Below, piece after piece: positions 5,488-19,459 of a stretch of 64,000 nt of DNA. The first letter of the stretch is position 1. Each line of letters opens with the position of its first letter. The position numbers and the translations under genes are program-made. The notes under the pieces were generated by a model, which saw only the letters and a list, made by a program, of their open reading frames with translations, was not told the DNA's origin and searched no databases. Source of the stretch: Neisseria wadsworthii 9715 (GTDB taxonomy: Bacteria; Pseudomonadota; Gammaproteobacteria; Burkholderiales; Neisseriaceae); the NCBI RefSeq assembly GCF_000227765.1, contig NZ_JH165159.1, forward strand, positions 1,626,675-1,690,674. The letters run 5' to 3'.

Positions 5488-7941
5488 TTAATGTTGCGTT
5501 GCTTTCGCGCTTGACTTAGTGCGTCGCCTTGTTTTAGGCAAAGAAGGCGCCTCAATCGGCTCAACGGGCGATGTCACGCCGCTTTCAGGCTGGCGTTCCA
5601 AGCCTAAAGCTAATACTTCATCTATCCATTTTACAGGATGAATCTGCAAACCTTCTTTTACATTTTGCGGAATCTCTTCCAAGTCTTTAACATTTCCATG
5701 AGGAATCAAGACATGTTGGATACCGCCGCGCAAGGCTGCCAAAAGTTTTTCTTTTAAGCCGCCAATCGGTAACACTTCACCGCGCAAAGTAATTTCACCG
5801 GTCATCGCAACGTCGGCACGCACAGGAATGCCGGTAAAAGCCGAAACCATGGCCAAAGTCATGGCAATACCCGCACTCGGCCCGTCTTTCGGCGTAGCAC
5901 CTTCGGGAACGTGAACATGCACATCGTTTTTCTCGTAGAAATCCGGTGCGATTCCCAAAGCCTCTGCACGTGAGCGCACAACCGTCCAAGCAGCGGAAAT
6001 CGATTCTTGCATCACATCGCCAAGCTTGCCGGTGCGTACAATATTTCCTTTGCCTTTCATTACGGCAGCTTCGATGGTCAGCAATTCGCCGCCTACTTCA
6101 GTCCAAGCCAAGCCGGTAACTTGACCAATGCGGTTTTCACTTTCTGCTACCCCGTAGTCAAATCGGCGCACGCCTAGATAATCATGCAGGTTTTTGTCGC
6201 TGACAACGATGGTTTTAGGCTTGGTTTTGCGGGTTTTGGTTTTCTGAGCATCTTCTTTCAACTGCACACTCATAACCACTTTGCGGCAGATTTTGGCAAT
6301 CTCGCGATCAAGTGAACGCACACCTGCTTCACGTGTGTAGTAGCGAACAATATCTCTTACAGCGCTGTTTTGAATTTCTACCTCGCCTTCCTTAACGCCG
6401 TTACGTTTCATCTGTTTGGGAATCAGATATTGCATGGCAATATTGATTTTCTCATCTTCGGTATAACCGGAAAGACGGATGATTTCCATACGGTCGAGCA
6501 GGGCAGGAGGAATGTTCAGGCTGTTGGAAGTGGCAATGAACATCACATCGCTTAAGTCAAAATCTACTTCAACAAAGTGGTCGGCAAATGAGTTGTTTTG
6601 TTCCGGGTCGAGCACTTCCAGCAATGCGCTTGCCGGATCACCACGAAAATCATTGCCGAGCTTGTCGATTTCGTCCAACAGGAAAAGCGGATTTTTTACC
6701 TCTGCTTTAATCATGTTTTGAATGATTTTGCCTGGCATCGAGCCGATATAGGTGCGGCGGTGACCACGGATTTCGCTTTCATCGCGTACGCCGCCTAAAG
6801 CCATACGCACATATTTACGGCCGGTAGCTTTAGCGATTGACTCGCCAAGTGAGGTTTTGCCGACCCCGGGCGGGCCTACCAAGCATAGAATCGGGCCTTT
6901 GAGCTTGTCGGTACGTTTTTGTACGGCTAAATACTCAAGAATACGTTCTTTAACTTTTTCCAAGCCGTAATGGTCTTCGTTTAAAACCAAGTCAGCCTTG
7001 GCAATATCTTTGATAACACGGTTTTTTTTCTTCCACGGCAGTTCGAGCAAGGTGTCAATATAGTTGCGCACTACAGTAGATTCGGCCGACATCGGCGGCA
7101 TCATTTTGAGCTTTTTAAGTTCAGACAGGCATTTGTCTTCTGCTTCTTTGCTCATACCGGCAGTTTTGATTTTGTTTTCCAAAGCTTCCAGTTCGCCGCG
7201 CTCGTCTTCTTCACCCAATTCTTTTTGAATTGCTTTAACTTGCTCGTTGAGATAATACTCGCGCTGTGATTTTTCCATTTGGCGTTTTACACGGCCGCGA
7301 ATGCGTTTTTCAACTTGCAGAATATCCAGTTCAGCTTCCAGCTGACCCAGCAGGAACTCCATGCGTTCGATGATGTCTGCTTTTTCCAGAATCATTTGGC
7401 GAAATTCCAACTTCAATTGAAGGTGGGCGGCAATGGTGTCTACCAAGCGGCCGTTGTCTTCAATGCTGTGGATGGTGCTTACGATTTCAGCCGGAATTTT
7501 TTTATTGGATTTTGTAAATTGATCGAATTGCGACAAAATCGCACGGCGCAATGCTTCTGCATCGGCATTTTTGCTTTCTTTTTCTTCAATATTTTCGGTT
7601 TGCGCTGAGAAATAGTTTTTTCCGGTTTGCACGGAAACTGCGCGCGCACGGCGGATGCCTTCAACCAAAACTTTAACGGTTCCGTCTGGTAATTTTAATA
7701 CTTGTAATACGTTGGCTAATGTACCGACTTGGTACAGATTATCAACCGATGGATCTTCATCGTTCGGGTCACGTTGTGCCAGCAGAAATACGGGGGAATC
7801 GTTTTCCATTGCAGCTTCCAGTGCGGCGATGGATTTTTGTCTGCCTACAAACAGTGGAAGTACCATGTGTGGATAAATCACTACGTCACGCAGTGGTAGG
7901 AGGGGCAGGGTGCCGTAATCCTCGAATTGTTTGTTTGCCAT
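5488..7941 (-). CDS. lon: ATP-dependent protease La (Lon)
   Basis: The 817-residue protein has the three Lon parts in order: an N-terminal substrate-binding domain ([20 protein letters not shown] near residue 13), an AAA+ module with Walker [10 protein letters not shown] near residue 360 and Walker B FLLDEIDK, and a C-terminal serine protease with the active-site segment [14 protein letters not shown] near residue 685. Lon degrades damaged and regulatory proteins in the cytoplasm. It is somewhat longer than E. coli Lon (784), with a basic C-terminal tail ([15 protein letters not shown]). A sigma-32-like promoter precedes it. Confidence 0.98.
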
Positions 7942-7983
7942 AATTGAATTCTGCTTTCTTTAAAAACTTACTTGATGAGCGTG

Positions 7984-8012
7984 AAATTGGGCCGGTAAAT
8001 TTGTTTTTCAAG
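7984..8012 (-). promoter_or_regulatory. heat-shock (sigma-32-type) promoter of lon
   Basis: On the minus strand, CTTGAAA (complement of 8006-8012), 14 bases, then CCCAATTT (complement of 7984-7991). The sigma-32 consensus is CTTGAAA, 13-15 bases, CCCCATNT. It lies about 45 bases before the lon start, and lon is a classical heat-shock gene. Confidence 0.65.
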
Positions 8013-8100
8013 AGATTTTGAATAGATTGTTTTAAGAGGGATTTATGAAAGGGGTGCGTGGATTGAAAATAGCTTTTGCGTTAAAATGTGAGATTCGATT

Positions 8101-8112
8101 TTCAGACAGGCA
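8101..8112 (-). repeat. DUS, TG dialect
   Basis: TTCAGACAGGCA in the lon/ybeD divergent gap. It faces the copy at 8181-8192, but about 70 bases apart, too far for a compact terminator hairpin. Confidence 0.85.
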
Positions 8113-8180
8113 TTCAGTATAGCTTAAAAAGCGAATGGCGGTGTTTTTTATTTTAATCACGCGGTAATCATCCTTATATA

Positions 8181-8192
8181 TGCCTGTCTGAA
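8181..8192 (+). repeat. DUS, TG dialect
   Basis: Exact TGCCTGTCTGAA about 20 bases before the ybeD start, overlapping the leader or promoter region of the lipoate genes. Confidence 0.85.
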
Positions 8193-8214
8193 AAGTAAGT
8201 TTAGGAATGTAACA

Positions 8215-8484
8215 ATGTCTGATGAAAAAAAAACGCTGATCGAGTTCCCTTGTAAGTTCCCTTTGAAAATCATGGGCGCTAAACATCCGGAATTTCCTGC
8301 CGAGGTGATTAAGGCAGTCAAAGTGCATGCACCGGATGCGAGCGAAGAACATTTACAATACCGTGAAAGCTCGAGCGGCAACTACACAGGGCTGACGTTG
8401 CCGGTGAATGTGGAAAATCAAGAGCAGCTCGATAATATTTATCGTGCACTCACTTCCCATCCTATGGTGAAAGTGGTTTTATAA
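8215..8484 (+). CDS. ybeD: DUF493 (YbeD-family) protein
   Basis: An 89-residue protein of the DUF493/YbeD family (family core [16 protein letters not shown]-terminus [11 protein letters not shown]), a small ferredoxin-like alpha/beta fold of unknown biochemical role. It is regularly found just upstream of lipB, as here: its stop overlaps the lipB ATG by one base, so they are translationally coupled. A run of nine A residues at codons 4-7 could allow slippage, but nothing else suggests phase variation. Confidence 0.88.
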
Positions 8485-9089
8485 TGAAAATCTTGCACTT
8501 AGGGTTGGCCGATTATCTGCCGACTTTTGAGGCGATGAAAAAATTTAATGATTCGCGTACCGAAAGCACCGAAGATGAGCTTTGGGTGGTGGAGCATCCG
8601 CCAGTGTTCACGCAAGGTTTGGCAGGAAAGCCCGAGCATCTATTGGTTCAAGATGATATTCCTGTGGTGCAAATCGACAGAGGCGGACAAATTACTTACC
8701 ATGGGCCCGGGCAATTGGTGGTTTATACCATGATTGATTTCAAACGCCGTAAAACAAGTGTTCGCCATATCGTTACGGCTTTGGAAAACAGTATTGTTGA
8801 TACGCTGGCAGCTTATGGAATCAAAGCCTCAGCCGATCCTAAAAGACCGGGGGTGTATGTTGAAGGAAAAAAAATTGCTTCTTTAGGCTTGAGAATTAAA
8901 AACGGCTCGGTTTACCACGGATTAGCGCTTAATATAAATATGGATTTAAATCCGTTTACCCATATTAACCCTTGCGGCTATGCGGGCTTGGAAATGGTGC
9001 AAATGGCCGATTTCCTTAAGCCTTGCCCTTCTGTTGCCGAAGTTGCAGCAAAGTTGACCTCTAATTTGCAAGAAAAATTAGCAATCTAG
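8484..9089 (+). CDS. lipB: octanoyl-[acyl-carrier-protein]:protein octanoyltransferase
   Basis: The 201-residue protein transfers octanoyl groups from ACP to lipoyl domains, the first step of endogenous lipoate synthesis. Family motifs are [11 protein letters not shown] near residue 36, the [16 protein letters not shown] signature near residue 72, the lysine-containing [13 protein letters not shown] near residue 132 and [15 protein letters not shown] with the catalytic Cys. Length is typical. It overlaps ybeD by one base and is followed by lipA after 107 bases. Confidence 0.96.
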
Positions 9090-9196
9090 ATAGAATCATA
9101 CTTCTATTTGAATTTTAATGGCATTATAGTGCATCAAAATATAGCTTATAGATTAATTTAAAGCTACCTCAAGAGAATTGCGAAAGAATACCTGAA

Positions 9197-10174
9197 ATGA
9201 ATAATGAAATGTCCACCAAACTTGATAATGCCCAAGGCGTAAAACACAAAGGTGCAGCTAAAACCGCACGTATTCCGATTAAAGTAGTGCCTTTGGAAGA
9301 AAAACTCAAAAAGCCTGAGTGGATTCGGGCCAAATTGCCCAATAATAAAAAGTTCTTCGAAATCAAGAATATTCTTCGTGATCAAAAAATGCATACGGTG
9401 TGCGAAGAAGCAAGTTGCCCGAATATCGGCGAATGCTTTAGTAAAGGTACGGCCACTTTTATGATTATGGGCGATATTTGTACCCGGCGCTGTCCTTTTT
9501 GTGATGTAGGTCACGGTAGACCGAATCCTTTGGATGCTGATGAACCTAAAAACTTGGCCGAGTCGGTTGCGGCAATGAATTTGCGCTATGTTGTGATCAC
9601 TTCCGTGGATAGAGACGATTTGCGCGATGGTGGCGCGCAGCATTTTGCAGACTGCATTCAGGCCATACGCGAACGAAGCCCGAATACCAAAATTGAAATT
9701 CTGGTGCCCGATTTCCGCGGTCGTTTAGATATAGCACTGCAAATTCTCGCACAAACACCACCAGATGTGATGAACCACAATCTGGAAACCCATCCCCGTT
9801 TGTATAAACAAGCCCGCCCGGGATCAGACTACAAGCATTCACTTGAATTGCTTCGCCGCTATAAAGAAATGATGCCTCATATTCCCACCAAGTCAGGTAT
9901 TATGGTGGGTTTGGGGGAAACTGATGAAGAAGTACGTGAAATCATGCGGGATATGCGGGCGCACAATATTGAAATGATTACAGTAGGCCAATACCTGCAA
10001 CCGAGTGACGGCCATTTGCCGGTGCTGCGTTATGTAACGCCCCAACAATTTAAAGAGTTTGAAAAAGAAGCTTATGAGATGGGTTTCACCAATGCTGCGA
10101 TTGGCGCAATGGTAAGGTCAAGTTACCATGCTGACGAACAAGCTGAACACGCTTGGAAAAATTGTGAATTCTAA
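9197..10174 (+). CDS. lipA: lipoyl synthase (3' end altered by transposon insertion)
   Basis: This radical-SAM enzyme inserts two sulfurs into the octanoyl chain made by LipB. Both Fe-S motifs are present: [12 protein letters not shown] (auxiliary cluster) and [10 protein letters not shown] (SAM cluster); the third element [15 protein letters not shown] is near the end. The last three codons and stop (TGT GAA TTC TAA) are the first bases of the Tn7-like element at 10163. Removing the element restores ...AWKNEA-stop, the sequence left at 19460-19473. The native C-terminal EA is thus replaced by CEF, which should leave the enzyme active. Its original downstream DUS hairpin now lies 9.3 kb away. 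Confidence 0.96.
10158..10162. repeat. target-site duplication, left copy (AAAAT)
   Basis: AAAAT directly precedes the TGT terminus of the Tn7-like element and is repeated at 19460-19464 right after its ACA terminus. A 5-bp duplication is what Tn7-type transposition produces. Confidence 0.9.
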
Positions 10175-10187
10175 CAATAAATGCTAC
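10163..10187 (+). repeat. left terminal inverted repeat
   Basis: It starts TGTGAATTCTAAC and matches the right-end repeat (19435-19459, complement) at 19 of 25 positions. Its first 12 bases are the last codons and stop of the present lipA frame. Confidence 0.88.
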
Positions 10188-10230
10188 TGAACATCGCTCT
10201 TTGGTGCTATACATCGATAAATGGTGCTGA
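10171..10230 (+). promoter_or_regulatory. left-end transposase binding array (three tandem 20-mers)
   Basis: Three head-to-tail 20-base units at 10171-10190, 10191-10210 and 10211-10230. The second and third read ACATCGCTCTTTGGTGCTAT and ACATCGATAAATGGTGCTGA; the first is more diverged. In Tn7-type elements such end repeats are TnsB sites. The array overlaps the possible early start of the tnsE-like gene at 10221, which argues for ATG 10245 as its start. Confidence 0.75.
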
Positions 10231-10244
10231 CATGGAATAACAAA

Positions 10245-11993
10245 ATGCCGGTGACCCAGATTAAAGAATTTCCCAACGACGGAAGAGTTTGGAGAATTGA
10301 TTGGTTCGGAGCGGTACGAAAAAACGATAACGTACCTACGGAACCGACCATTGACGTTTATCTCAGACCTGTATCAGTAACAGACAAAGAGTCTATTGCT
10401 GATTTTGGTTGGTCAAATAAAGAGAGAATATGTTGTCCTGTTGGTGTTGGACAGCTGCCGCTACTTACTATCGGATCTCTATGGGAAAATGGTAAATTAT
10501 TGGATCACCAAATTATTGTGCCTAGTAATCTACCGAATGTTAACATAACTGAAGATTCTGTACGTTTGATTGAAGCAGGGCATAAAGATGAAACTGGTTA
10601 TATCATCAATAAAGCTGCCTTTGATATTGGCGGTTTCAAAAATGGATTATCTGCAAGATGTTTGGCTATTGCGTCTGATGAAGATCCCTACTCAATCATT
10701 ATTCCCGTTGCCGAAGTTATTCGTTTTTATTACGTTATTTCAACCAATTTGGCCAAAATTGCTTTTTTGGGGTCATATGAAACTAATTTCGATCAAATCA
10801 TCGGTGAACGATGCGGTTTTGATTCAAAAACCAAGATTCTCATAATCCATTTACGACAATGGCTTTACGATAATGAGGGATGGGTTTTGGGTAGGATTTT
10901 AAGGGACAAAAATGCACAGCAGGGATTTTTCCAAATTCATCGTTCGTTAGTCAAACAATTAGCGGGCAAGTATCATCAGCCGATGCCGGAAACTAATTTC
11001 CCGTTTCAAGGAAAAACAGACTGGGCTGCACGCTGCCTAAGTTTTAGGAGCGGAGAAAGGGTTCGTACCTTAGTCTTAGAATTATTGCGTTGTGCTGCTC
11101 CCTTTCCTTTTTCTAATTTGGTGGTTATCAGAGACAATGATGGCAGGCAAGCATCTCCAGAAACTGATCTCCCGGAAGCAAATAAACGTCCTTATCTAAG
11201 GAACCAGGGATTAAAATCTGGTACTTCAAAAAAACTGCATAGCATAGAAGAACCCGTGCAGAATATGAAAAGAATGGTTATTGACTATATAAAAGAACGT
11301 TTTGGAGATCTTCGGAATAAAAAACTCATAAAGCTTGAAAAAGAGTTTTGTAATTATAGAAAAACAGACTTACTGCTTTCGCCGCCATCTGAATCGACCA
11401 CAGCATTGGGAACCGGAGACGGTACACTAGGACAGTCCAAAACTGCCCCCGTTTCAATCTCTGTTAATGTTGGGAAAAAAACTGGCATCGCTCAAAAGCT
11501 ACGTTCTCACAGTCGTTCCGAAGCTCTGCCTGCTACCTTTGAAAATATGATGGCCGCCGTCCGATATTTATCAGAGAACTATCAAGATAAAGGTGTTACG
11601 ACAAAAGTATGGCCGACCCTATATATGCCGTTAACTTCTAATCGTAGCAGCCAATGGTCTTATTTAGATACTTCTGCAACAACAACCAACCTAGTCAAAA
11701 CTCCAAGAAGAGTTTTAATTGCCGAACTCAAGATAGGTAATATGCTATTTTGGTTGGTGGAGTTTGAACAGAGAGAATCAGAATCTCTAACTGCTGCTAT
11801 GATATATGGAGCAAGTTCGATGAAGGCTGAAGAAATAAAAAAAATCTTGCATTTGCTTGCTAAGTCAAAAGGAATTTGGAAAAATATTTCAACAAACGGA
11901 AAGTTTCATATCAGGTCTATGAAGCATAGTTGGCCTAGCATTGAGGAGTATGCTTTATCTATCTATAAAATCTGTTCAACAATTTCCGGTTAA
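10245..11993 (+). CDS. TnsE-like transposon protein (tentative)
   Basis: A 582-residue protein with no signal peptide or membrane segment. Layout and local motifs recall Tn7 TnsE, which steers Tn7 to replicating or conjugating DNA: an N-terminal WRIDWFG segment (residue ~16; TnsE also has a WRI..WF segment), an IPVAEVIRFYYVISTNLAK helix, a polar middle, and a C-terminal domain with RRVLIAELKIGNMLFWLVEF and a final HSWPSIEEYALSIYKIC. ATG 10245 has GGAA 7 bases upstream; an in-frame ATG at 10221 lies inside the binding array. The gene sits at the left end, opposite in direction to tnsABC-tniQ, unlike Tn7. The link is by eye only and could be wrong. Confidence 0.5.
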   Translation: MPVTQIKEFPNDGRVWRIDWFGAVRKNDNVPTEPTIDVYLRPVSVTDKESIADFGWSNKERICCPVGVGQLPLLTIGSLWENGKLLDHQIIVPSNLPNVNITEDSVRLIEAGHKDETGYIINKAAFDIGGFKNGLSARCLAIASDEDPYSIIIPVAEVIRFYYVISTNLAKIAFLGSYETNFDQIIGERCGFDSKTKILIIHLRQWLYDNEGWVLGRILRDKNAQQGFFQIHRSLVKQLAGKYHQPMPETNFPFQGKTDWAARCLSFRSGERVRTLVLELLRCAAPFPFSNLVVIRDNDGRQASPETDLPEANKRPYLRNQGLKSGTSKKLHSIEEPVQNMKRMVIDYIKERFGDLRNKKLIKLEKEFCNYRKTDLLLSPPSESTTALGTGDGTLGQSKTAPVSISVNVGKKTGIAQKLRSHSRSEALPATFENMMAAVRYLSENYQDKGVTTKVWPTLYMPLTSNRSSQWSYLDTSATTTNLVKTPRRVLIAELKIGNMLFWLVEFEQRESESLTAAMIYGASSMKAEEIKKILHLLAKSKGIWKNISTNGKFHIRSMKHSWPSIEEYALSIYKICSTISG

Positions 11994-12039
11994 AATATCC
12001 TGGAGCTATCTTTATCAAAGTTAAGTTGAGAATAATAAA

Positions 12040-13884
12040 ATGAAACTAAAAAAAATATCTTTCGATGAAAAAGGATTTCGTAAGTTAAAGAATATTGAAA
12101 TTCCCATTGCTCCGTATATTACAGCAATTGCAGGACATAATGGCATTGGAAAATCTACTATATTAGGTTTGATTGCTAACTGCTCTGGACTTTCTAAAGG
12201 GGAGAAAAGTTTTTTCGGAAAAGTATTTCAATCTAATTTTCAAGAAGCTTTCCATTTGGACTACTTTCAAGATTATGACAACTACCATATAAATGGGACT
12301 AAAAAAGCAGATACGCCTAAGGTTACCGTTCAATATCATGTCGAGACAAACCAAGATGGCAGCTTTATTGAACTCAATAAAATATGTGCAGTAAGTATAC
12401 AAAAACATGCTATCAAGGAGCGGCTCTATAAAAATCATATGATTAAGGTGCCGGAAGATAAGCATATAGATCCAAATCATTCTCTTGATTTAGAAGATTT
12501 TGATAACAATTCATTATCTTCATCTTCTGAACCACTAATTAATATCTGGCGGCTACGTATTATTCCACGAACACAACAATTACCTAATACTCCAGAGATA
12601 GAGGTGTTGGATGAAAAACTTAAAGGAGCTGGTAAAATGCCAATTCCTACCCTGTACTTGGGAATGAGTAGAATGACACCTATTGGTGAGTTTGATGCGG
12701 AACTTATCGATAAAAAAACCATTAGAAAAATGAATGGAGAAGACAAAAACTTTATTGTTAATTCTTTTAAAGATGTATTGTATTTTGATGAATCTGATAA
12801 TGAAATTACAGCTCACTCTTTTTCGAGCTCTAAAAAAAGCTCATATCTCCCTTCTTTTCCATATCATTCTTTTACAGTTTCGTTGGGACAAGATTCACTT
12901 AGCTCAATAGTGACTGCCTTAGCTTCATTCAACTATTTAAAAAGAACCTCCCCTCAAACTTATAGTGGAGGTATTTTGGTAATTGATGAGGTTGACGCTG
13001 GACTACACCCTAGAGCCCAAGAAAAACTGATAAATTTACTTCATACACAAGCTAGGAAACTTAATCTTCAAATTATCTTAACCACACATTCATTAACTGT
13101 CATTAAAACTATCCTGTCCAAAAACGAACATCCAGGAGAGAAGGTAAATGATGTTGTTTACTTACAAGACTCAAACTTTCCTAGGATTATGGAAAATCCC
13201 ACATATACAAAAATTAAAAATGATATGCTTGTGTTAGCCCCTCTTGAAGATAAGCCAGAAACAATAAAGCTTTATTTTGAAGATGATGAAGCATTATTTT
13301 TCTTTAAACAGATATTAAAATACAAAAATATCATTCATGATAAAGACTACTTTGGGAAAGAGCTGGAACTGATCAGCTTAAGTGTCGGATGTAATATTTT
13401 ATTGGATCTACATAAAGGAGATTCATATTTTCAAAGTGTTATTTTAATTCCAGATAATGATGTTTTCTCTAGTGAGTCCAATCGAAAAACAATTGAAGAA
13501 AACCCAAATATATGTCCATTGCCAAATGACTCCACTTTCACTGACAACACAAGACATACTGAACGCAATCCGGAGATGATTCTATATCGTTTCTTGCAAA
13601 GAAAGCTTGAAGGACATAATGATAACTTCTGGAAACAGATGCCTGGTGCCTATACAAGCGACTATGTTAGAGACAGGGTTATTACTCTAACATCAAATTC
13701 TAATCGGGATGAGAATAAAAAATGGTTTCAAGATAATGTGAATTTTATTGAAAAAAGTGGCATCATTGAAAAGTGGTGCGGAGAAAATGAAAAACAAGTA
13801 GATATGTTTTTAGAGAGGATTGTTGAAGCAGTAAATATTGTTTCATGTTCTAAAAGTTACCGTCAAAATCAGCTGGCCAAATAG
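12040..13884 (+). CDS. ABC/OLD-type ATPase with TOPRIM-like C-terminal region (putative defence)
   Basis: This 614-residue protein has an SMC/ABC-type ATPase domain: Walker A GHNGIGKST at ~31-39, then a long insert, Walker B GGILVIDEVDAGLHPRAQ at ~308 and a switch histidine in TTHS. After ~405 comes a region resembling TOPRIM/DUF4435 nucleases: KLYFEDDEALFFFKQIL (acidic first motif) and VILIPDNDVF (Asp-x-Asp-type motif), then an ERNPEMILYRFLQRK segment. The set recalls OLD, Gabija GajA and PARIS proteins, all anti-phage ATPase-TOPRIM systems. It is AT-rich compared with flanking chromosomal genes. A methyltransferase gene follows after 51 bases. A defence role is inferred, not shown. Confidence 0.65.
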   Translation: MKLKKISFDEKGFRKLKNIEIPIAPYITAIAGHNGIGKSTILGLIANCSGLSKGEKSFFGKVFQSNFQEAFHLDYFQDYDNYHINGTKKADTPKVTVQYHVETNQDGSFIELNKICAVSIQKHAIKERLYKNHMIKVPEDKHIDPNHSLDLEDFDNNSLSSSSEPLINIWRLRIIPRTQQLPNTPEIEVLDEKLKGAGKMPIPTLYLGMSRMTPIGEFDAELIDKKTIRKMNGEDKNFIVNSFKDVLYFDESDNEITAHSFSSSKKSSYLPSFPYHSFTVSLGQDSLSSIVTALASFNYLKRTSPQTYSGGILVIDEVDAGLHPRAQEKLINLLHTQARKLNLQIILTTHSLTVIKTILSKNEHPGEKVNDVVYLQDSNFPRIMENPTYTKIKNDMLVLAPLEDKPETIKLYFEDDEALFFFKQILKYKNIIHDKDYFGKELELISLSVGCNILLDLHKGDSYFQSVILIPDNDVFSSESNRKTIEENPNICPLPNDSTFTDNTRHTERNPEMILYRFLQRKLEGHNDNFWKQMPGAYTSDYVRDRVITLTSNSNRDENKKWFQDNVNFIEKSGIIEKWCGENEKQVDMFLERIVEAVNIVSCSKSYRQNQLAK

Positions 13885-13935
13885 ATTAGCTTACTTTATA
13901 ATCAACAACTAAACAGATAGTAAAAAGGTTTCTCA

Positions 13936-14799
13936 ATGGCTGGACATTCCAATCCTCTTACCCCTCTACGTTACCCTGGAGGGAAAGGGGCTTTTGCACC
14001 TTTCGTAAGGGCTGTAATGGATGTCAACAATCTAACGGGAGGGCACTATCTTGAGCCTTTTGCTGGTGGATGTGGCGTGGCTTTAGATCTACTTTTCAAT
14101 CAATATTGCTCTGACATCCATATTAATGATTTGGATTTAGCTATTTATAACTTTTGGAACTCTATTACGAACGATTCAGAAAATTTTCTAGCACTTTTGT
14201 ATGATGTGCCACTATCTGTTGAAGAATGGGAAAAACAAAAAATTATATTGCAGCATCCGGAAGAATATTCTTCGTTGGCTCATGGGTTTGCTGCTTTCTA
14301 TCTAAATAGAACCAACCGGTCGGGTATTTTAAAAGCTGGAGTAATTGGAGGGAAAAGTCAAAATGGAACTTATAAACTAGATGCCCGATTCAATAAAGAA
14401 CGATTGTCCAAATTGATTATTCGCATTGCGAAATATGCAAATCATATCCACATATACAATGAAGATGCTTTATCATTGCTGCAAAAAGTAAATACCTTAC
14501 TACCAGAGAAATCACTTATTTATCTAGATCCGCCATATTATGTAAAGGGACAAGGACTGTATAGGAATTTTTATAATCATAATGACCATGTCAATATTTG
14601 TAATGCCTTAGGTTCTGTGAATCGAAAATGGATAGTCTCGTATGACAATTGCTCTGAAATAAAAAAAATCTATCAGAAATACAGGCAGGATGAGTATTTT
14701 TTGACCTATTGTGCATACAATAAGGTAAAAGGATCTGAGATCATGATTTATGGAAAGGACATAAATATCCCAGAAAAGAGACTATTAATCAATAAATAA
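13936..14799 (+). CDS. D12-class DNA N6-adenine methyltransferase (Dam-like)
   Basis: A 287-residue Dam-type enzyme expected to transfer methyl from SAM to adenine in DNA. Motifs in family order: TPLRYPGGKGAF (motif X, residue ~9), YLEPFAGGCGVALDL (motif I, SAM binding, ~37), and catalytic DPPY in IYLDPPYYVKGQG (motif IV, ~197). Length suits Dam (about 280), but the target sequence cannot be read from the protein. It follows the ATPase gene by 51 bases on the same strand, with no restriction enzyme of a known type nearby, so the two may form one module. It is AT-rich like its partner. Confidence 0.85.
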   Translation: MAGHSNPLTPLRYPGGKGAFAPFVRAVMDVNNLTGGHYLEPFAGGCGVALDLLFNQYCSDIHINDLDLAIYNFWNSITNDSENFLALLYDVPLSVEEWEKQKIILQHPEEYSSLAHGFAAFYLNRTNRSGILKAGVIGGKSQNGTYKLDARFNKERLSKLIIRIAKYANHIHIYNEDALSLLQKVNTLLPEKSLIYLDPPYYVKGQGLYRNFYNHNDHVNICNALGSVNRKWIVSYDNCSEIKKIYQKYRQDEYFLTYCAYNKVKGSEIMIYGKDINIPEKRLLINK

Positions 14800-14836
14800 A
14801 TGGGGAATTATAAGAAAATATTTTTTATAGTAACTG

Positions 14837-15877
14837 TTATTTTAAATGTTGTTTACGATAAAGATTTTTCCTGCTGTTTCTGTTTAAAGTGGCAACTAGT
14901 TTTCTGAATTCTTCTGGACAATCATCAAAATCTTTCAGCATATGGTTATAGCGCAAAACACCATCTTTCCATGCCTGAAAGAGATTGTCCGGATAATTAT
15001 CCATCAGCCACCAACATAAATCCAAAGTATGGTGGCGTTCGATCAGTTCTCTGCTTTCCCATGCTGTACGCTTGCTTTTATCAATTTTTTGTGGTTGTGA
15101 ACCGGTTTTTAGGCATAAATAGGAATATAATTTCGGTGCCAGTCGTTGTGAAGTTAATAGCGTGACAAAGTGGTGCAATATTTTCAAACTGTCTCTATAA
15201 CTGTTTTGTGAACTTTCTACCGGGTAGTGTTCCAACCAAACTAACAGTCTTCGCCATTGTTCAAGTGTATTACCACTCCAAGCTGTAACGGGTTGTGTTT
15301 CTGTACAAGCCAAGTCGGTTTTACACTGCCAGCAGAATTTGAGGGGCCGAAACGCTGTTTCTTGCATATTTCCTATCTCTTGCCGATGGAATGCAACACC
15401 CGCACCGCAATGTGAACATCGGTCGTGAAGTATCACTTTGTGCTTTGGGCAAAAGGTATAGCAGGCAACACGCCATGACACCCTAAAATAAGGTTCATAG
15501 TCTTCTGCCAAGCACAATGGACAGAACAATAAACCGTATCCTACGCGTTTCCGATGGTATATCTGCAAACTGTTTACCCACGTCAGATGTCCTGATGGAC
15601 GTACTTTGTCAAACAAAATGCCCTGAAAACGCCGTAGTGAAGTTCTATCGATTTTCTCCGCACTTATTCCGCTTTTTTCACTTAGCTTTGTAACTATCCA
15701 CTCTGGAATATATCTGTCAATGTCCCGATTCCATATCTCATAATTGTTCCCAAAGACTAAGTTGCAAAATGTCTGAACTTTTAGTCCGTTCGCATGTGCC
15801 GTTCGAACCAGCCATGAAGACAGTAATTCATTATGATACGGATGGGGATGTGCTGGCCAAAGATGTAAGTCAGACAT
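14837..15877 (-). CDS. tniQ: TniQ/TnsD-type target-selection protein
   Basis: A 346-residue zinc-finger protein of the TniQ family, which chooses the insertion site for Tn7/Tn5053-type elements. The N-terminus LWPAHPHPYHNELLSSWLVR is the TniQ signature. Cysteine/histidine pairs follow in LLFCPLCLAED (~124), CPKHKV, DRCSHCGAG and FCWQCKTDL. It is much shorter than Tn7 TnsD (about 508) and closer to TniQ of Tn5053 and of guided elements. It lies 2 bases after tniB, the last gene of the transposition operon, convergent with the methyltransferase gene. Confidence 0.85.
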   Translation of the reverse strand: MSDLHLWPAHPHPYHNELLSSWLVRTAHANGLKVQTFCNLVFGNNYEIWNRDIDRYIPEWIVTKLSEKSGISAEKIDRTSLRRFQGILFDKVRPSGHLTWVNSLQIYHRKRVGYGLLFCPLCLAEDYEPYFRVSWRVACYTFCPKHKVILHDRCSHCGAGVAFHRQEIGNMQETAFRPLKFCWQCKTDLACTETQPVTAWSGNTLEQWRRLLVWLEHYPVESSQNSYRDSLKILHHFVTLLTSQRLAPKLYSYLCLKTGSQPQKIDKSKRTAWESRELIERHHTLDLCWWLMDNYPDNLFQAWKDGVLRYNHMLKDFDDCPEEFRKLVATLNRNSRKNLYRKQHLK

Positions 15878-15879
15878 AT

Positions 15880-16773
15880 CTAAGCCAGTTTGTCTATTTG
15901 CCGCTTCCGCTCAGTAGGTGTTACCCAGCCGATTGAATCAAGCACTTCATGATTTATTTGTTCCGTTTCATTTTGTACAGCAGTTGCGGCAGCTTCTGTC
16001 AGTACCCGAGATAGCTCTCCAATATATCCTTCGCTCATATTGTACAATCTGACGGCAAGTTCTCTCGTTTGCAGTTCAGACGGTCTTTTCAGGGGGATCA
16101 TTCTTTCAAAGCTAACCAATAACCGAAGAAAATTTCTATCTAAGTTCCATCTAGGCAGAACAGCCGGTTCGAATCGGTTGGATAACTGCGGATCAGTTTG
16201 CAACGCACGGAAAGCATCCTTAGTGCCTATACCGACAATCGGTATTTGTAAATCGTTTCCTAGATATTTGATGACATTCAGAAAAGCCCTTTGCCGGTTC
16301 ATGCTACCAGCCAAGATATGATGGATTTCGTCAATAATCAGCATTCTAGTTTGCATACGTTTGAGTAAGTGTATGACTTGAGTCTGCTTCTTATCTATTC
16401 TGTCATGCGATTTATATGGTGCAAAGATTGCATCTAAAATGGTATTGTAAAATCTTCCTTCATCCGGAACAGGTGGAGCCTGAACCAGCAGTACAGGAAC
16501 CAATACACTGTCACCATCTAAATTTTGGTCAGCAGGATGTTTTCTTAAAAAACGGTGAGCCAGCATGGTTTTACCGTTATTGGTATCTCCGACAATCAGA
16601 AGATTCGGCATACGGTGGATTTTGGGATAAACCAAAAGATCTTCCAGTTTGTCCAAAATGTGTCCAGCTTGGGGATAGCCTATCCAATGCGGCGAACGGA
16701 TATGCCAGATGCGTTCCTCTGTATCAGCATCCAAATATGTGGCGGTTTTTGTGTGCAAATGAGGATATTTCAT
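15880..16773 (-). CDS. tniB: TniB/TnsC-type AAA+ transposition regulator
   Basis: A 297-residue AAA+ ATPase linking the TniQ-marked target to the transposase. Walker A is VGDTNNGKTMLAHRF (residue ~62) and Walker B MLIIDEIHHILAG (~148); a sensor-like segment IPIVGIGTKDAFRAL follows. It is half the length of Tn7 TnsC (about 555) and fits the TniB/MuB-like short form. Its ATG overlaps the tnsB stop by four bases (ATGA), so the two are translationally coupled. Confidence 0.88.
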   Translation of the reverse strand: MKYPHLHTKTATYLDADTEERIWHIRSPHWIGYPQAGHILDKLEDLLVYPKIHRMPNLLIVGDTNNGKTMLAHRFLRKHPADQNLDGDSVLVPVLLVQAPPVPDEGRFYNTILDAIFAPYKSHDRIDKKQTQVIHLLKRMQTRMLIIDEIHHILAGSMNRQRAFLNVIKYLGNDLQIPIVGIGTKDAFRALQTDPQLSNRFEPAVLPRWNLDRNFLRLLVSFERMIPLKRPSELQTRELAVRLYNMSEGYIGELSRVLTEAAATAVQNETEQINHEVLDSIGWVTPTERKRQIDKLA

Positions 16774-18671
16774 GACAAATCATCCAAGTCGTCAAACGGC
16801 TGTACATTTTCAAAAGACATTTCAGTCTCCAGCGAATCCGTTTGCGGAAAAGCAGTGGCTGTATTATTGATACCGTTATTCTCTTTGGGAACCGGTTTGG
16901 TTATAGCAATACTTTCATTTTTTTTACGTCGTTGCATCGCTCTGCGTACCGCTTTGGTTTTACCTTGAGCTTGTTCTTCCATCTCGCGCATCTTGCCATA
17001 AGCTGAAAAAATCATTCTTTCGTCAATGTTGGATTTGTGTTCCTGTTTGAGTTGGCGGTTGATTTCCCTTAACTCCCAAATACTCATAACTGGATGGGAA
17101 CTGTCCCGGTAAGGGATAGCAAAATAGCTATTCAATTCAGGGTCAAAAAACCAGATTACGCTGAGATCACGAGGGTCAAATCGAAACACAAACTGACGAG
17201 CCCTTTTCGGGTTTCCCGGTTCTGTTGAACCAATCCAAGTGCGAAGTACATCATGCCAATAATGAATTTTATGGATGGATACGCCATATTGTTGGACGGT
17301 TCTCATTTCAAAAGGCATGAAATCCAATCGGAATTTGGTTTCATCTAGGACTTTAGGCGGCATACCCGTTCCCGGGAGAGAGTCAGTACCGAATATACCT
17401 TCTTTATATTTGGCCATCGGCGACATACCCAATGCTGAATGCATCCTCTGGTGATACACACCGGTAATGAAAGTTGTCAGCCATTTTTCAAATTCTGACA
17501 GTGTAAATACTGCACTGTCTTCGGAATCATAATTACGACGTTCGACAACATTGGAAAAAGTCGTACCGGGCAAAGTATGTATTTCCTGTAAAACCGTACC
17601 CAGTAGTCGCTCTATATGACCACCGAAATGTGGCCGCCCCACCGGACGCCATTCAATGTCGATACCGTATTGTTTACAAGCTTTTTCCAATACTTTGCCG
17701 TGAAACTCCCTTGCATTGTCCAAATGGATTTTTCGTGGTAATCCCCAACACGGCCACAAGCCTTCCACTTCATGCTGGGCAAGCCATTTTTCTTTTGTCA
17801 GTACAGAATGAGCTAGACACAATCCTGCCGATAATGCACTAGGTGGATCAAAGGAAATGTAGAATCCGGGAATCATCCGGCTGAACACATCAACTGCCAT
17901 TGTGATCCACGGGCGACCAATTGGTTTACGGTAAACATCATCCACCAGAATAATATCTAGTTTCGTATGGTCTATCTGAATGACCGCCAACGGAAAATCC
18001 GCATTGGGAAAACTGCCCTTAGACGGTTTAAACTGCTCCTCAGCAGCTTTTTTCCCCTGTCTTTTCGCTATCTTAAACTGAGGATCCAGCTTGCTGATGC
18101 GGGCACGGATAGTATTGTTATGAGGATATGCCAATCCTACATCCAAGCATTGCCGCTTGATCTCGTTAATTATTTGTTGGACTGGCTTTTTTTGTTTGGT
18201 CAGATATTCTTTTTCAATAACGGATTGGACGATCTCTTCGACATTGCTGTCAATACGATAGCAACCTTTGTCTTTTCGGTGTTGTTTGAATAAACCCGTT
18301 AGCAAACCTGTTTCGTGGTATTGCCGAAGCCAGCGGTAAATGGTATTGGTATGAACACCAAACTGTGCAGCTCTTTCTTCAACAGCTTTCTTCGTCCGTT
18401 TTTTATCGTCCAGTAAAGGCTTGATAATCTCAAAACGTTTTGTTGCCGTGGCCCATTCTTGTGCATCGATGGTACTTAAATCTTGGGCGGAAGGAGGTTC
18501 ATTCGTTATGGAGGACAACTCCGCCACTTTAACTTGATAAGTTTTACGGCTTTCTACCTCAGTCAGCAAAACCGTGTCCAAATCCACAATGTTTGTAATT
18601 ACACAGCAGATCCCGTTAAATTCGACCATTGCCCCCGGTCGAATATCTAACACAGCCTTTCCGGTATTCAT
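16770..18671 (-). CDS. tnsB: TnsB/TniA-type DDE transposase
   Basis: The 633-residue DDE recombinase joins transposon ends to target. It has a helix-turn-helix region (GVHTNTIYRWLRQYHETG, ~113), then a retroviral-integrase core with Asp in IQIDHTKLD (~235), Asp in IHLDNAREFHG (~318) and Glu in GGHIERLLGT (~353), and a Mu-type beta-barrel C-terminus. I chose ATG 18671 because it overlaps the tnsA stop as ATGA and has GGAG 8 bases before it. The longer frame to 18782 would overlap tnsA by over 100 bases. A basic C-terminal tail (KTKAVRRAMQRRKKN) probably contacts the regulator. Confidence 0.92.
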   Translation of the reverse strand: MNTGKAVLDIRPGAMVEFNGICCVITNIVDLDTVLLTEVESRKTYQVKVAELSSITNEPPSAQDLSTIDAQEWATATKRFEIIKPLLDDKKRTKKAVEERAAQFGVHTNTIYRWLRQYHETGLLTGLFKQHRKDKGCYRIDSNVEEIVQSVIEKEYLTKQKKPVQQIINEIKRQCLDVGLAYPHNNTIRARISKLDPQFKIAKRQGKKAAEEQFKPSKGSFPNADFPLAVIQIDHTKLDIILVDDVYRKPIGRPWITMAVDVFSRMIPGFYISFDPPSALSAGLCLAHSVLTKEKWLAQHEVEGLWPCWGLPRKIHLDNAREFHGKVLEKACKQYGIDIEWRPVGRPHFGGHIERLLGTVLQEIHTLPGTTFSNVVERRNYDSEDSAVFTLSEFEKWLTTFITGVYHQRMHSALGMSPMAKYKEGIFGTDSLPGTGMPPKVLDETKFRLDFMPFEMRTVQQYGVSIHKIHYWHDVLRTWIGSTEPGNPKRARQFVFRFDPRDLSVIWFFDPELNSYFAIPYRDSSHPVMSIWELREINRQLKQEHKSNIDERMIFSAYGKMREMEEQAQGKTKAVRRAMQRRKKNESIAITKPVPKENNGINNTATAFPQTDSLETEMSFENVQPFDDLDDLS

Positions 18672-19330
18672 CGCTTTCTCCATAATGTAGAATTCATCGT
18701 CAGCGGTAGGTTCAAATCTGCACCGATTTCTCCTACGGCCACTAGATACCATAACACTGGTAAAATCTTTGCCTGATTCCACTCATCTTGAAAAACAGCT
18801 GCAACTAGCTCTCTCGGAGTAGCTGTTTTAAGCTCTTTTAATTTTTGGTCAAGTAGTATCATATATGGCTCGTAATATTCATGCACAACGGCATTCCGCA
18901 TATAGGGCAGCAGAAATCGCACGTTTTGAAGATAGACTGTATGAATTTCAACTTCAGTGACCAGTTTGAACATCCAGCCCTTTTGTCGGCAAAATGCTCT
19001 TGCTGCTTTAAATTTTGGCTGCAATACTGACCAGTTTTTCCTCAAATCGCTTCGGTATTTGACTTCATAGAGAATTATCGTAACAGGTTGCCGACTAGGT
19101 TTGTAGTGCACCAAAACATCAGGTGTGTACATATGCTTTTTGCCGGAATCATCAAACCATTCGATAGAAACCGGTTGTACCTCGAAGCGGATTACATCGG
19201 GATAAAACTCCAATAAACTAAGGAAATCCCGTTCCAAAGAAGATTCATAAGCTGCGCAGCCTACAGACTTAGAATAGGCGGCCATTCCAGTGATATTACG
19301 GTAATTTTTAGGAATTTTTCTGACAGGCAT
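18668..19330 (-). CDS. tnsA: TnsA-type endonuclease
   Basis: A 220-residue restriction-like nuclease that cuts the 5' strands so the element moves by cut-and-paste and not by copying. It shows the fold's acidic residues: Glu in YESSLERDFLSLLEF (~32), Asp in MYTPDVLVHY (~73) and an Glu-x-Lys pair in LYEVKYRSDL (~90); Tn7 TnsA has Gln-x-Lys there. The C-terminus carries the TnsC/TnsB-contact type helical region. It is the first gene of the four-gene operon, nearest the right end, and has no strong ribosome site. Its pairing with short TniB and TniQ makes this a hybrid of Tn7 and Tn5053 layouts. Confidence 0.87.
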   Translation of the reverse strand: MPVRKIPKNYRNITGMAAYSKSVGCAAYESSLERDFLSLLEFYPDVIRFEVQPVSIEWFDDSGKKHMYTPDVLVHYKPSRQPVTIILYEVKYRSDLRKNWSVLQPKFKAARAFCRQKGWMFKLVTEVEIHTVYLQNVRFLLPYMRNAVVHEYYEPYMILLDQKLKELKTATPRELVAAVFQDEWNQAKILPVLWYLVAVGEIGADLNLPLTMNSTLWRKR

Positions 19331-19336
19331 GATAAT

Positions 19337-19451
19337 TCAGTCTCAAATATCGTTGTAATTTTGACTTAAGGATAAATTTTTAACCCGTTTAGCACTAAAT
19401 AATAATGTAGAAAATAAAGTTTTAGGTCGTTTGGGCACCATTTAATGATGG
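19337..19451 (-). promoter_or_regulatory. right-end transposase binding sites (three spaced 20-mers)
   Basis: Complement-strand copies of the left-end unit at 19337-19356, 19389-19408 and 19432-19451, matching the best left unit at about 13-15 of 20 positions. They are spaced, unlike the tandem left array. Such asymmetry lets Tn7-type transposases tell the ends apart. The innermost copy overlaps the region where the tnsA promoter should be, so TnsB may repress its own operon. Confidence 0.65.
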
Positions 19452-19459
19452 AATTTACA
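19435..19459 (-). repeat. right terminal inverted repeat
   Basis: Read inward on the minus strand it starts TGTAAATTCCATC and matches the left repeat at 19 of 25 positions. It ends in ACA on the plus strand. Confidence 0.88.

What the first reader, a model, noticed from the sequence alone, without database searches (positions are those of the whole stretch)
12040..14799. Candidate defence module: ATPase/TOPRIM-like protein plus D12 adenine methyltransferase
The two AT-rich cargo genes sit 51 bases apart on the same strand. The ATPase has OLD/GajA/PARIS-like features with an acidic TOPRIM-like tail; the second gene is a Dam-type methylase. I know of no named anti-phage system made of exactly this pair. 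One logical model is that methylation marks self DNA and the nuclease attacks unmarked DNA. Transposon cargo is a common home for such systems.
Basis: inference. Interest (0 to 1): 0.75.

Follow-up and report, generated by a model that had tools for sequence, protein, structure and literature searches.

The report
Methylase paired with guard-like nuclease ATPase
A jumping gene in this bacterium carries two linked genes, one that chemically marks DNA and one that looks like an ATP-driven nuclease; the same pair recurs across very different bacteria, and the marking enzyme belongs to a known anti-phage system in which it works with a different partner, so it is probably a phage-defence module with interchangeable weapons.

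Summary
Two AT-rich genes, 51 bp apart on the + strand, lie inside a 9,297-bp Tn7-like transposon (10163-19459). Gene 1 (614 aa) is an OLD/PARIS-like ABC ATPase whose tail carries invariant TOPRIM-type acidic residues (E414, D472, D474; 76 of 76 aligned homologues). Its tail profile matches DUF4435 (AriB of PARIS); fold search of the tail alone is inconclusive. The pair is real: 66 of 80 retrieved ATPase homologues have a D12 methylase within 2 kb, against 1 of 20 control PARIS/OLD loci.

Seen from the methylase, the neighbour is PD-lambda-5_A (a ParB-like protein), this ATPase, or both: 24, 14 and 1 of 41 viral loci, 2 without either. A methylase tree rejects a single switch between partners, and a switch occurs inside the window's own genus. 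Conserved target-recognition residues do not differ between partners.

Best reading: a variant of PD-lambda-5 in which a PARIS-like ATPase-nuclease replaces or joins subunit A, using methylation to tell self from foreign DNA. Trigger and substrate (DNA or tRNA) are not shown. New variant of a known kind.

The parts
12040..13884 (+). ABC/OLD-like ATPase with C-terminal TOPRIM (DUF4435-like) domain, 614 aa; ATPase about residues 1-399, TOPRIM-like about 402-614
13273..13284 (+). TOPRIM motif 1 region, codons 412-415 (Y-F-E-D); E414 and D415 invariant in 76 of 76
13453..13461 (+). TOPRIM DxD motif, codons 472-474 (D-N-D); D472 and D474 invariant in 76 of 76
13936..14799 (+). D12-class N6-adenine DNA methyltransferase, PD-Lambda-5_B family, 287 aa (DPPY motif at residues 198-201)
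10163..19459 (.). Tn7-like (Tn6022-like arrangement) transposon that carries the pair; flanked by 5-bp duplication AAAAT; inserted in the last codons of lipA
10221..11993 (+). TnsE-like protein, 590 aa, near the left end (weak TnsE_C match, below cut-off)
   Evidence: arrangement compared with PMC10293859 (passages)
14837..15877 (-). TniQ target selector
15880..16773 (-). TnsC/TniB ATPase
16770..18782 (-). TnsB transposase
18668..19330 (-). TnsA endonuclease

Best explanation
The pair is a two-gene anti-phage module, an alternative-partner form of PD-lambda-5. The methylase (same family as PD-lambda-5_B) marks an adenine motif on resident DNA. The ATPase-TOPRIM protein is the effector. Its ABC ATPase head senses either DNA that lacks the mark or interference with the methylase, and then releases the TOPRIM nuclease. 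By analogy with AriA/AriB the outcome is most likely abortive (nucleic-acid damage that stops the infected cell), with direct cutting of unmarked phage DNA as the close alternative. Shown here by sequence: the two families, the catalytic motifs, the conserved pairing, and the repeated exchange of effector on one methylase platform. Inferred: defence function, self-marking, trigger, substrate and abortive outcome.
For: Pairing: 66 of 80 ATPase homologues have a D12 methylase within 2 kb (52 of them within 120 bp; median gap 16 bp for the 51 of these on the same strand), against 1 of 20 control PARIS/OLD loci. In the window's genus 3 of 46 species match the tail and all 3 have the methylase (in G591 the ATPase is broken and the two genes lie on different contigs); the methylase is in 5 of 46 and the other 2 have the PD-lambda-5_A-like partner (L143's partner scores 683 bits). 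Exchange of partner: 41 viral methylase loci give 24 PD-lambda-5_A-like, 14 ATPase, 1 both, 2 neither; the methylase tree needs at least 12 changes, and AU tests reject holding the 67 ATPase-only rows together (p 2e-5) and holding the 33 ParB-only rows together (p 4e-6). Same mark: of 115 positions of the presumed target-recognition region, 21 are at least 80% conserved with the same residue in both partner classes and 0 with a different residue. Modification link: ATPase homologues without this methylase sit beside Type I R-M genes in 4 loci and near C5 methylases in 2. Defence link: PD-lambda-5 protects E. coli against phage and was cloned in an mrr-region deletion host (PMC9519451); in two E. 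coli prophages opened, methylase and ATPase lie between the replication endonuclease and portal genes, a known P2 defence hotspot; a sister species carries a Type III R-M system in the same transposon slot.
Against: No activity was measured for either protein. Tail-only Foldseek found no match at E <= 0.001, and the tail (residues 370-614) gave no PADLOC match. DUF4435 itself is not called in any of 76 tails at E <= 0.05, and OLD-like_TOPRIM_1 only in 1 of 76 (E 0.0079). The methylase could be an orphan regulator. 14 of 80 ATPase homologues have no PD-lambda-5-type methylase (>= 180 bits) and in one more it is 3.8 kb away; four of the 14 (L076, L083, L091, L101) have no modification gene nearby that I recognised by eye, so the ATPase does not strictly need this methylase.
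Confidence: 0.68

Rival explanations
1. Restriction-modification-like: the ATPase-TOPRIM is itself the restriction enzyme, an OLD-type DNA nuclease that cuts DNA lacking the adenine mark, and the infected cell survives.
For: Full-length profile matches OLD proteins (hhalign 99.2, E 1e-19) through the DxD; whole-model best Foldseek hits are OLD, Retron-Eco8 OLD and GajA; the two-gene form has no other nuclease; the presumed target-recognition region is conserved. Broken ATPase reading frames with an intact methylase are seen (L005, L030; G591), as when a restriction gene is lost.
Against: The tail matches DUF4435/AriB (77.5) and not OLD TOPRIM (0.4) at profile level, although DUF4435 and OLD do not find each other either (0.42). 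No target-recognition module in the ATPase was identified.
Confidence: 0.32
2. Guard/abortive: the ATPase head senses phage inhibitors of the methylase or R-M system (as AriA senses Ocr) and unleashes an AriB-like nuclease on host tRNA.
For: DUF4435-like tail; homologues beside or inside Type I R-M loci, as PrrC is in EcoprrI (recalled); the ATPase stands with both PD-lambda-5 genes in 13 loci where subunit A is supported by PADLOC at about 137 bits or more and the methylase by my profile; PARIS itself lies near a PD-lambda-5 pair in G133.
Against: In 43 of the 65 ATPase loci with this methylase no subunit A was seen, so there is often no separate restriction activity to guard; trigger unknown; tRNA cleavage not testable here.
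Confidence: 0.36
3. Not defence: an orphan methylase and an OLD-like ATPase act in maintenance of mobile elements (stability, replication control), the pair being a plasmid/transposon addiction module.
For: The pair is found on mobile DNA (plasmids, prophages, this transposon); an archaeal OLD protein (Cran1) has a housekeeping role (PMC12796447, passages).
Against: Close family link to an experimentally tested defence system (PD-lambda-5), the P2 defence hotspot, neighbouring R-M genes, and the cargo slot exchanged for a Type III R-M system in a sister species.
Confidence: 0.12

Closest known systems
PD-lambda-5 (Vassallo et al. 2022, PMC9519451; PADLOC PD-Lambda-5_A/_B)
   Same: Same adenine methylase family (393 bits), same two-gene layout, same conserved residues in the presumed target-recognition region, mobile-element location; some loci carry PD-lambda-5_A, the methylase and this ATPase together
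   Different: The partner is an ABC ATPase-TOPRIM protein instead of the ParB/Srx-like PD-lambda-5_A; no PD-lambda-5_A by model PDLC04014 in the own genome
PARIS (AriA + AriB/DUF4435; 'class 4 OLD')
   Same: ABC/OLD-type ATPase joined to a TOPRIM nuclease whose profile matches DUF4435; E and DxD residues align
   Different: Single chain; DUF4435 below detection by Pfam; a methylase partner that 6 of 7 PARIS-type control loci lack
OLD nucleases classes 1-3 (P2 Old, Gabija GajA, Retron-Eco8 effector)
   Same: N-terminal ABC ATPase plus C-terminal TOPRIM-type motifs; best whole-model Foldseek hits
   Different: No UvrD helicase or reverse transcriptase partner; OLD-like_TOPRIM (PF20469) not detected; the 13 OLD controls score 405-550 bits to an OLD profile built with them but at most 39 bits to this family's profile; methylase partner
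Type I R-M loci with an embedded nuclease (EcoprrI/PrrC, recalled)
   Same: Relatives of this ATPase sit beside hsd genes (L077, L080, L082, L113)
   Different: PrrC has a different nuclease domain (recalled); here the usual partner is a single D12 methylase

Membership tests
PD-lambda-5 | PD-Lambda-5_B methylase | tested here: met
   PDLC04018 393.3 bits, E 1.6e-118, residues 8-282
PD-lambda-5 | PD-Lambda-5_A partner beside it | tested here: not met
   The partner is the ATPase, with no PD-Lambda-5_A model among its best 25 of 123 matches (the other 98 were not shown); own genome has no match to PDLC04014 at E <= 0.01 (only one of the A models was tried)
PD-lambda-5 | Anti-phage activity | not testable with these tools
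   needs phage challenge
PARIS | AAA_15/AAA_21 ATPase over threshold (32 / 27 bits in PMC9122126, passages) | tested here: met
   65.6 and 69.9 bits
PARIS | DUF4435 (AriB) over threshold | tested here: not met
   No DUF4435 in gene 1 at E <= 0.001 nor in any of 76 tails at E <= 0.05; only a remote profile match, probability 77.5
PARIS | Triggered by Ocr, cleaves tRNA | not testable with these tools
   biochemistry
OLD class 2 / Gabija | OLD-like_TOPRIM PF20469 | tested here: not met
   absent from gene 1 at E <= 0.001; own genome 0 matches at E <= 1e-8
OLD class 2 / Gabija | UvrD-like helicase GajB alongside | tested here: not met
   neighbours are the TnsE-like gene, the methylase and TniQ
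OLD class 3 / retron | Reverse transcriptase and ncRNA alongside | tested here: not met
   No reverse transcriptase among the 7 proteins of the element scanned with Pfam; ncRNA not searched
OLD superfamily | ABC ATPase followed by TOPRIM fold with E and DxD | tested here: inconclusive
   Motifs invariant in 76 of 76 and whole-model best hit is OLD 6p74, E 2.6e-12; tail-only fold match weak, Z 6.2 at best for an OLD structure
Type II restriction-modification | Cognate restriction endonuclease next to methylase | tested here: inconclusive
   No known endonuclease family next to it; whether the ATPase-TOPRIM cuts DNA is unknown
Tn7-like transposon | TnsA, TnsB, TnsC, TniQ | tested here: met
   TnsA_N/C, TniB and TniQ over cut-off; TnsB by Mu-transpos_C over cut-off
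Tn7-like transposon | TGT...ACA ends and 5-bp target duplication | tested here: met
   ends at 10163 and 19459, AAAAT on both sides; uninterrupted site in G582
Tn7-like transposon | TnsE | tested here: inconclusive
   TnsE_C 16.5 bits against cut-off 26.7

The most novel reading that the evidence does not exclude
The D12 methylase is a shared immune platform. One conserved methylation mark is read or guarded by two unrelated, exchangeable weapons, the ParB/Srx-like PD-lambda-5_A and an ABC-TOPRIM (PARIS-like) nuclease, used singly or together. PD-lambda-5 would then be one member of a wider superfamily of modification-anchored systems, and relatives of the ATPase-TOPRIM arm also guard Type I R-M systems.
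Probability: 0.5. Interest if true: 0.72.

Novelty: new variant of a known kind. Interest (0 to 1): 0.58.

Why it matters
It links two defence families that have been filed apart (PD-lambda-5 and the PARIS/OLD group) through one shared methylase. It also gives a direct test of how modification systems are coupled to cell-suicide effectors: same methylase, probably the same mark, two unrelated effectors, with natural loci carrying either or both. If true, loci with this methylase but without PD-lambda-5_A become a recognisable second type of the system.

Tried and rejected
Rejected: (1) 'no link to any named system' - the methylase is PD-Lambda-5_B by PADLOC. (2) 'The ATPase is PD-Lambda-5_A' - that subunit is a different protein, shown by L006 and L007 partners at 577 and 630 bits. 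(3) 'It is Gabija or a retron effector' - no PF20469, no helicase or reverse transcriptase. (4) 'It is PARIS' - DUF4435 below detection, separate family by profile score.

Led nowhere or weak: tail-only Foldseek, nothing at E <= 0.001; VIA second look, no AriB structure among the 50 rows shown, OLD structures mixed with other folds; promoter/terminator scan, 15 promoter-like sites against 14.4 expected, no terminator-like site; megablast of the pair in plasmids, no match; order-level protein search, 30 of 200 genomes with a match, but besides the own locus only partial, weak ones (E 1e-7 or worse); AriAB fusion model, 2 of 299 genomes, used only as controls; Mesorhizobium plasmid hit opened but it carries no annotation and was not analysed; accession search in papers, 0.

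Rows dropped: of 80 viral methylase loci only L157-L197 (41; at least 33% identical) were scored for partners; L198-L236 (39, at most 31% identical) were left out. Of 17 genomes, 12 besides the own one were opened; G282, G378, G219 and G255 (135-139 bits) were not opened for their methylase. Controls: both AriAB matches, all 5 DUF4435 matches and 13 of the 23 OLD matches; the stretches differ in length (6.3-13 kb). My ParB-like profile was trained on some of the loci it then labels: of the 24 'both' loci, PADLOC gives PD-Lambda-5_A at about 137 bits or more in 13, weakly (28-34 bits, N-terminal part only) in 6, and not at the thresholds used in 5. Rows are not dereplicated (e.g. L157/L158), except identical methylases in the tree; the 6 loci labelled 'none' and methylases outside 240-345 aa were left out of the tree. 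Broken ATPases with intact methylases (L005, L030, G591, perhaps L172 and L197) against no clear reverse case (partial methylases at L008, L154 and L196 lack an intact ATPase too) is suggestive only.

Full report
WHAT IS THERE. They are the AT-richest genes of the element (GC 0.333 and 0.356; TnsE-like 0.393; tns genes 0.425; outside 0.481). Pfam gives AAA_21/AAA_15 for the first and MethyltransfD12 for the second, all over cut-off. Around them are TnsA, TnsB, TnsC/TniB and TniQ on the minus strand and a 590-aa protein with a sub-threshold TnsE_C match on the plus strand near the left end. PMC10293859 (passages) describes a TnsE near the left end, away from the other genes, for Tn6022-type elements. 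The ends are at 10163 and 19459, with related terminal repeats and AAAAT on both sides. A sister species, G582, shows the uninterrupted site in the last codons of lipA.

THE METHYLASE HAS A KNOWN FAMILY. PADLOC places gene 2 in PD-Lambda-5_B (393 bits, E 1.6e-118). PD-lambda-5 was found by phage selection in E. coli. [quoted passage not shown] The mrr deletion suggests an active DNA-modifying enzyme (my inference). The known partner, PD-Lambda-5_A, is a different protein: on a Kosakonia and a Vibrio plasmid the gene before the same kind of methylase scores 577 and 630 bits to PD-Lambda-5_A models. It bears NPR and GNRR motifs (alignment) and is annotated ParB/Srx-like in the Vibrio record.

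THE ATPASE. Its PADLOC matches shown (best 25 of 123) are ATPases of other systems (best mad3, 69 bits), and the tail alone gave none. An AlphaFold2 model from 76 homologues has mean pLDDT 86.7. Its best whole-chain Foldseek hits are OLD 6p74 (E 2.6e-12), the Retron-Eco8 effector and GajA. VIA aligns residues 1-399 to PtuA/SMC/Rad50 heads at Z about 15-18. Walker A (K38, 75 of 76, one gap), S281/G283, D316/E317 and H350 are conserved, and in the tail E414, D415, D472 and D474 are invariant in 76 of 76. In the model E414 directly follows strand 408-413 and the DxD follows the strand at 468-470, as in TOPRIM domains (recalled).

The tail modelled alone has pLDDT 91.6, but fold search is only suggestive: no Foldseek hit at E <= 0.001; four OLD TOPRIM rows near the top (Z 5.8-6.2) plus retron Eco2 (5.2) and 6nk8 (5.0), among unrelated alpha/beta folds up to 6.6. 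Sequence profiles are clearer. Tail against a five-sequence DUF4435 alignment gives probability 77.5, E 1.9e-5, over 67 columns that align E with E and DxD with DxD; two unrelated profiles give 0.5 and 1.3, and ten column shuffles at most 0.25. Against OLD the tail alone gives 0.4, but DUF4435 against OLD also gives 0.42, so that miss is uninformative; the full-length profile against OLD gives 99.2 through the DxD.

THE PAIR IS CONSERVED. All 8 plasmid-collection records with a tblastn match to the ATPase also have a methylase match within about 1 kb of it, in Gammaproteobacteria, Bacillota and Fusobacteriota. A scan of GTDB genomes found 273 relatives and kept 80. In 66 of 80 a D12 methylase (E <= 1e-5 to gene 2; at L054 only 26% identical) lies within 2 kb: 37 directly downstream, 14 directly upstream, 1 adjacent on the other strand, 14 at 120-2000 bp. 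With a stricter 180-bit methylase profile within 3.5 kb the figure is 65 of 80. Of the 14 with no methylase of 180 bits, two (L072, L112) end at a contig edge. The control, 7 PARIS-type and 13 OLD loci, has this methylase in 1 of 20, and that one is a PD-lambda-5 pair near a PARIS pair. In the own genus the tail matches in 3 of 46 species and the methylase in 5 of 46, including all three. In G591 the ATPase is broken into several frames and the two genes lie near the ends of two contigs, so their adjacency is inferred.

PARTNER EXCHANGE. In 41 viral methylase loci the neighbour is PD-lambda-5_A-like in 24, the ATPase in 14, both in 1, and neither in 2, one of these starting at the contig edge and one a partial methylase. 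In 12 opened loci of a phylum sample (methylase in 17 of 398 genomes) the counts are 8 ParB-like (two of them, L146 and L153, weak at 65-70 bits and about 1 kb away), 1 ATPase, 1 none with a partial methylase, and 2 with methylases under 180 bits. In the genus, G594 has the ATPase while G582 and G589 have the PD-lambda-5_A-like gene. A tree of 124 methylases (67 ATPase-only, 33 ParB-only, 24 both) needs at least 12 changes between the two single-partner states; starred branches force at least 12 changes for the ATPase-only label and 13 for the ParB-only label; the window, G594 (ATPase) and G582 (ParB) form one supported group of three (SH-aLRT 96). AU tests on this quick tree reject holding the ATPase-only rows together (p 2e-5) and holding the ParB-only rows apart from all 91 ATPase-bearing ones (p 4e-6). 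Twenty-four loci have all three genes by my profiles; PADLOC supports subunit A at about 137 bits or more in 13 of them. Conservation of the presumed target-recognition region (residues 76-190, before DPPY) is alike in both partner classes (mean top-residue frequency 0.55 and 0.57), with 21 shared conserved positions of 115 and none conserved but different. This suggests, but does not prove, one recognition sequence.

R-M CONTEXT. Four ATPase homologues without this methylase lie beside Type I R-M genes: HsdR at L077; HsdM and HsdS at L080 and L082; HsdS at L113. Two have a C5 methylase nearby on the other strand (L079, L097). E. coli: 19 of 5,426 genomes match the pair's DNA, the 10 rows shown all in the methylase part. 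The two opened carry methylase then ATPase between the replication endonuclease and portal genes, a position that PMC9519451 describes as a defence hotspot of P2-like phages. In G588 the same transposon (96.6% identical over the tns part) carries a Type III R-M system in the slot that holds our pair.

HOW IT MOST LIKELY WORKS. Shown: families, motifs, linkage, partner exchange. Inferred from PD-lambda-5, PARIS and OLD knowledge: the methylase marks self; the ATPase head holds the TOPRIM nuclease in check; loss of the mark or of methylase function releases it. The DUF4435-like tail and the R-M neighbours favour an abortive guard slightly over direct restriction; I give these 0.36 and 0.32. They are sub-versions of the main reading.

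KNOWN OR NEW. OLD classes 1-5 as described in passages of PMC12796447 and PMC10568477 include no methylase-paired class in what I saw. PMC12839542 (passages) says OLD-ABC ATPases in ABC-ATPase-anchored R-M-like systems were surveyed earlier by Aravind's group; that paper is not held, so priority for the dyad cannot be excluded. Paper searches used. I therefore file it as a new variant of a known kind, not as a new kind.

Noticed in passing
window 10163-19459: Tn7-like element inserted in the last codons of lipA, bringing its own stop codon; G588 has the same element at lipA with a GAATG duplication and a Type III R-M cargo. lipA or lipoyl does not occur in the main text of two Tn7-like survey papers searched within.
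   Followed up: partly
window 10163-19459: The 12-mer TGCCTGTCTGAA (a Neisseria-type DNA uptake sequence, recalled) occurs 52 times in the window and 0 times in the 9.3-kb element, which fits recent foreign DNA.
   Followed up: no
L249 (G601) about 2193: A near relative keeps both transposon ends but lacks everything from about 10388 to 19201: an internally deleted remnant.
   Followed up: no
L077, L080, L082, L113: Relatives of the ATPase-TOPRIM gene sit beside Type I restriction-modification genes.
   Followed up: partly
L152 (G133) 6201-12378: A PD-lambda-5 pair lies about 1.5 kb from an AriA-like ATPase plus DUF4435 (PARIS) pair.
   Followed up: no
L005, L030, L319 (G591): ATPase reading frames are broken while the methylase is intact; no clear reverse case was seen.
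   Followed up: no
window 26628-29351 (-): Several partly overlapping minus-strand frames look like pieces of one broken outer-membrane receptor gene, by eye only.
   Followed up: no
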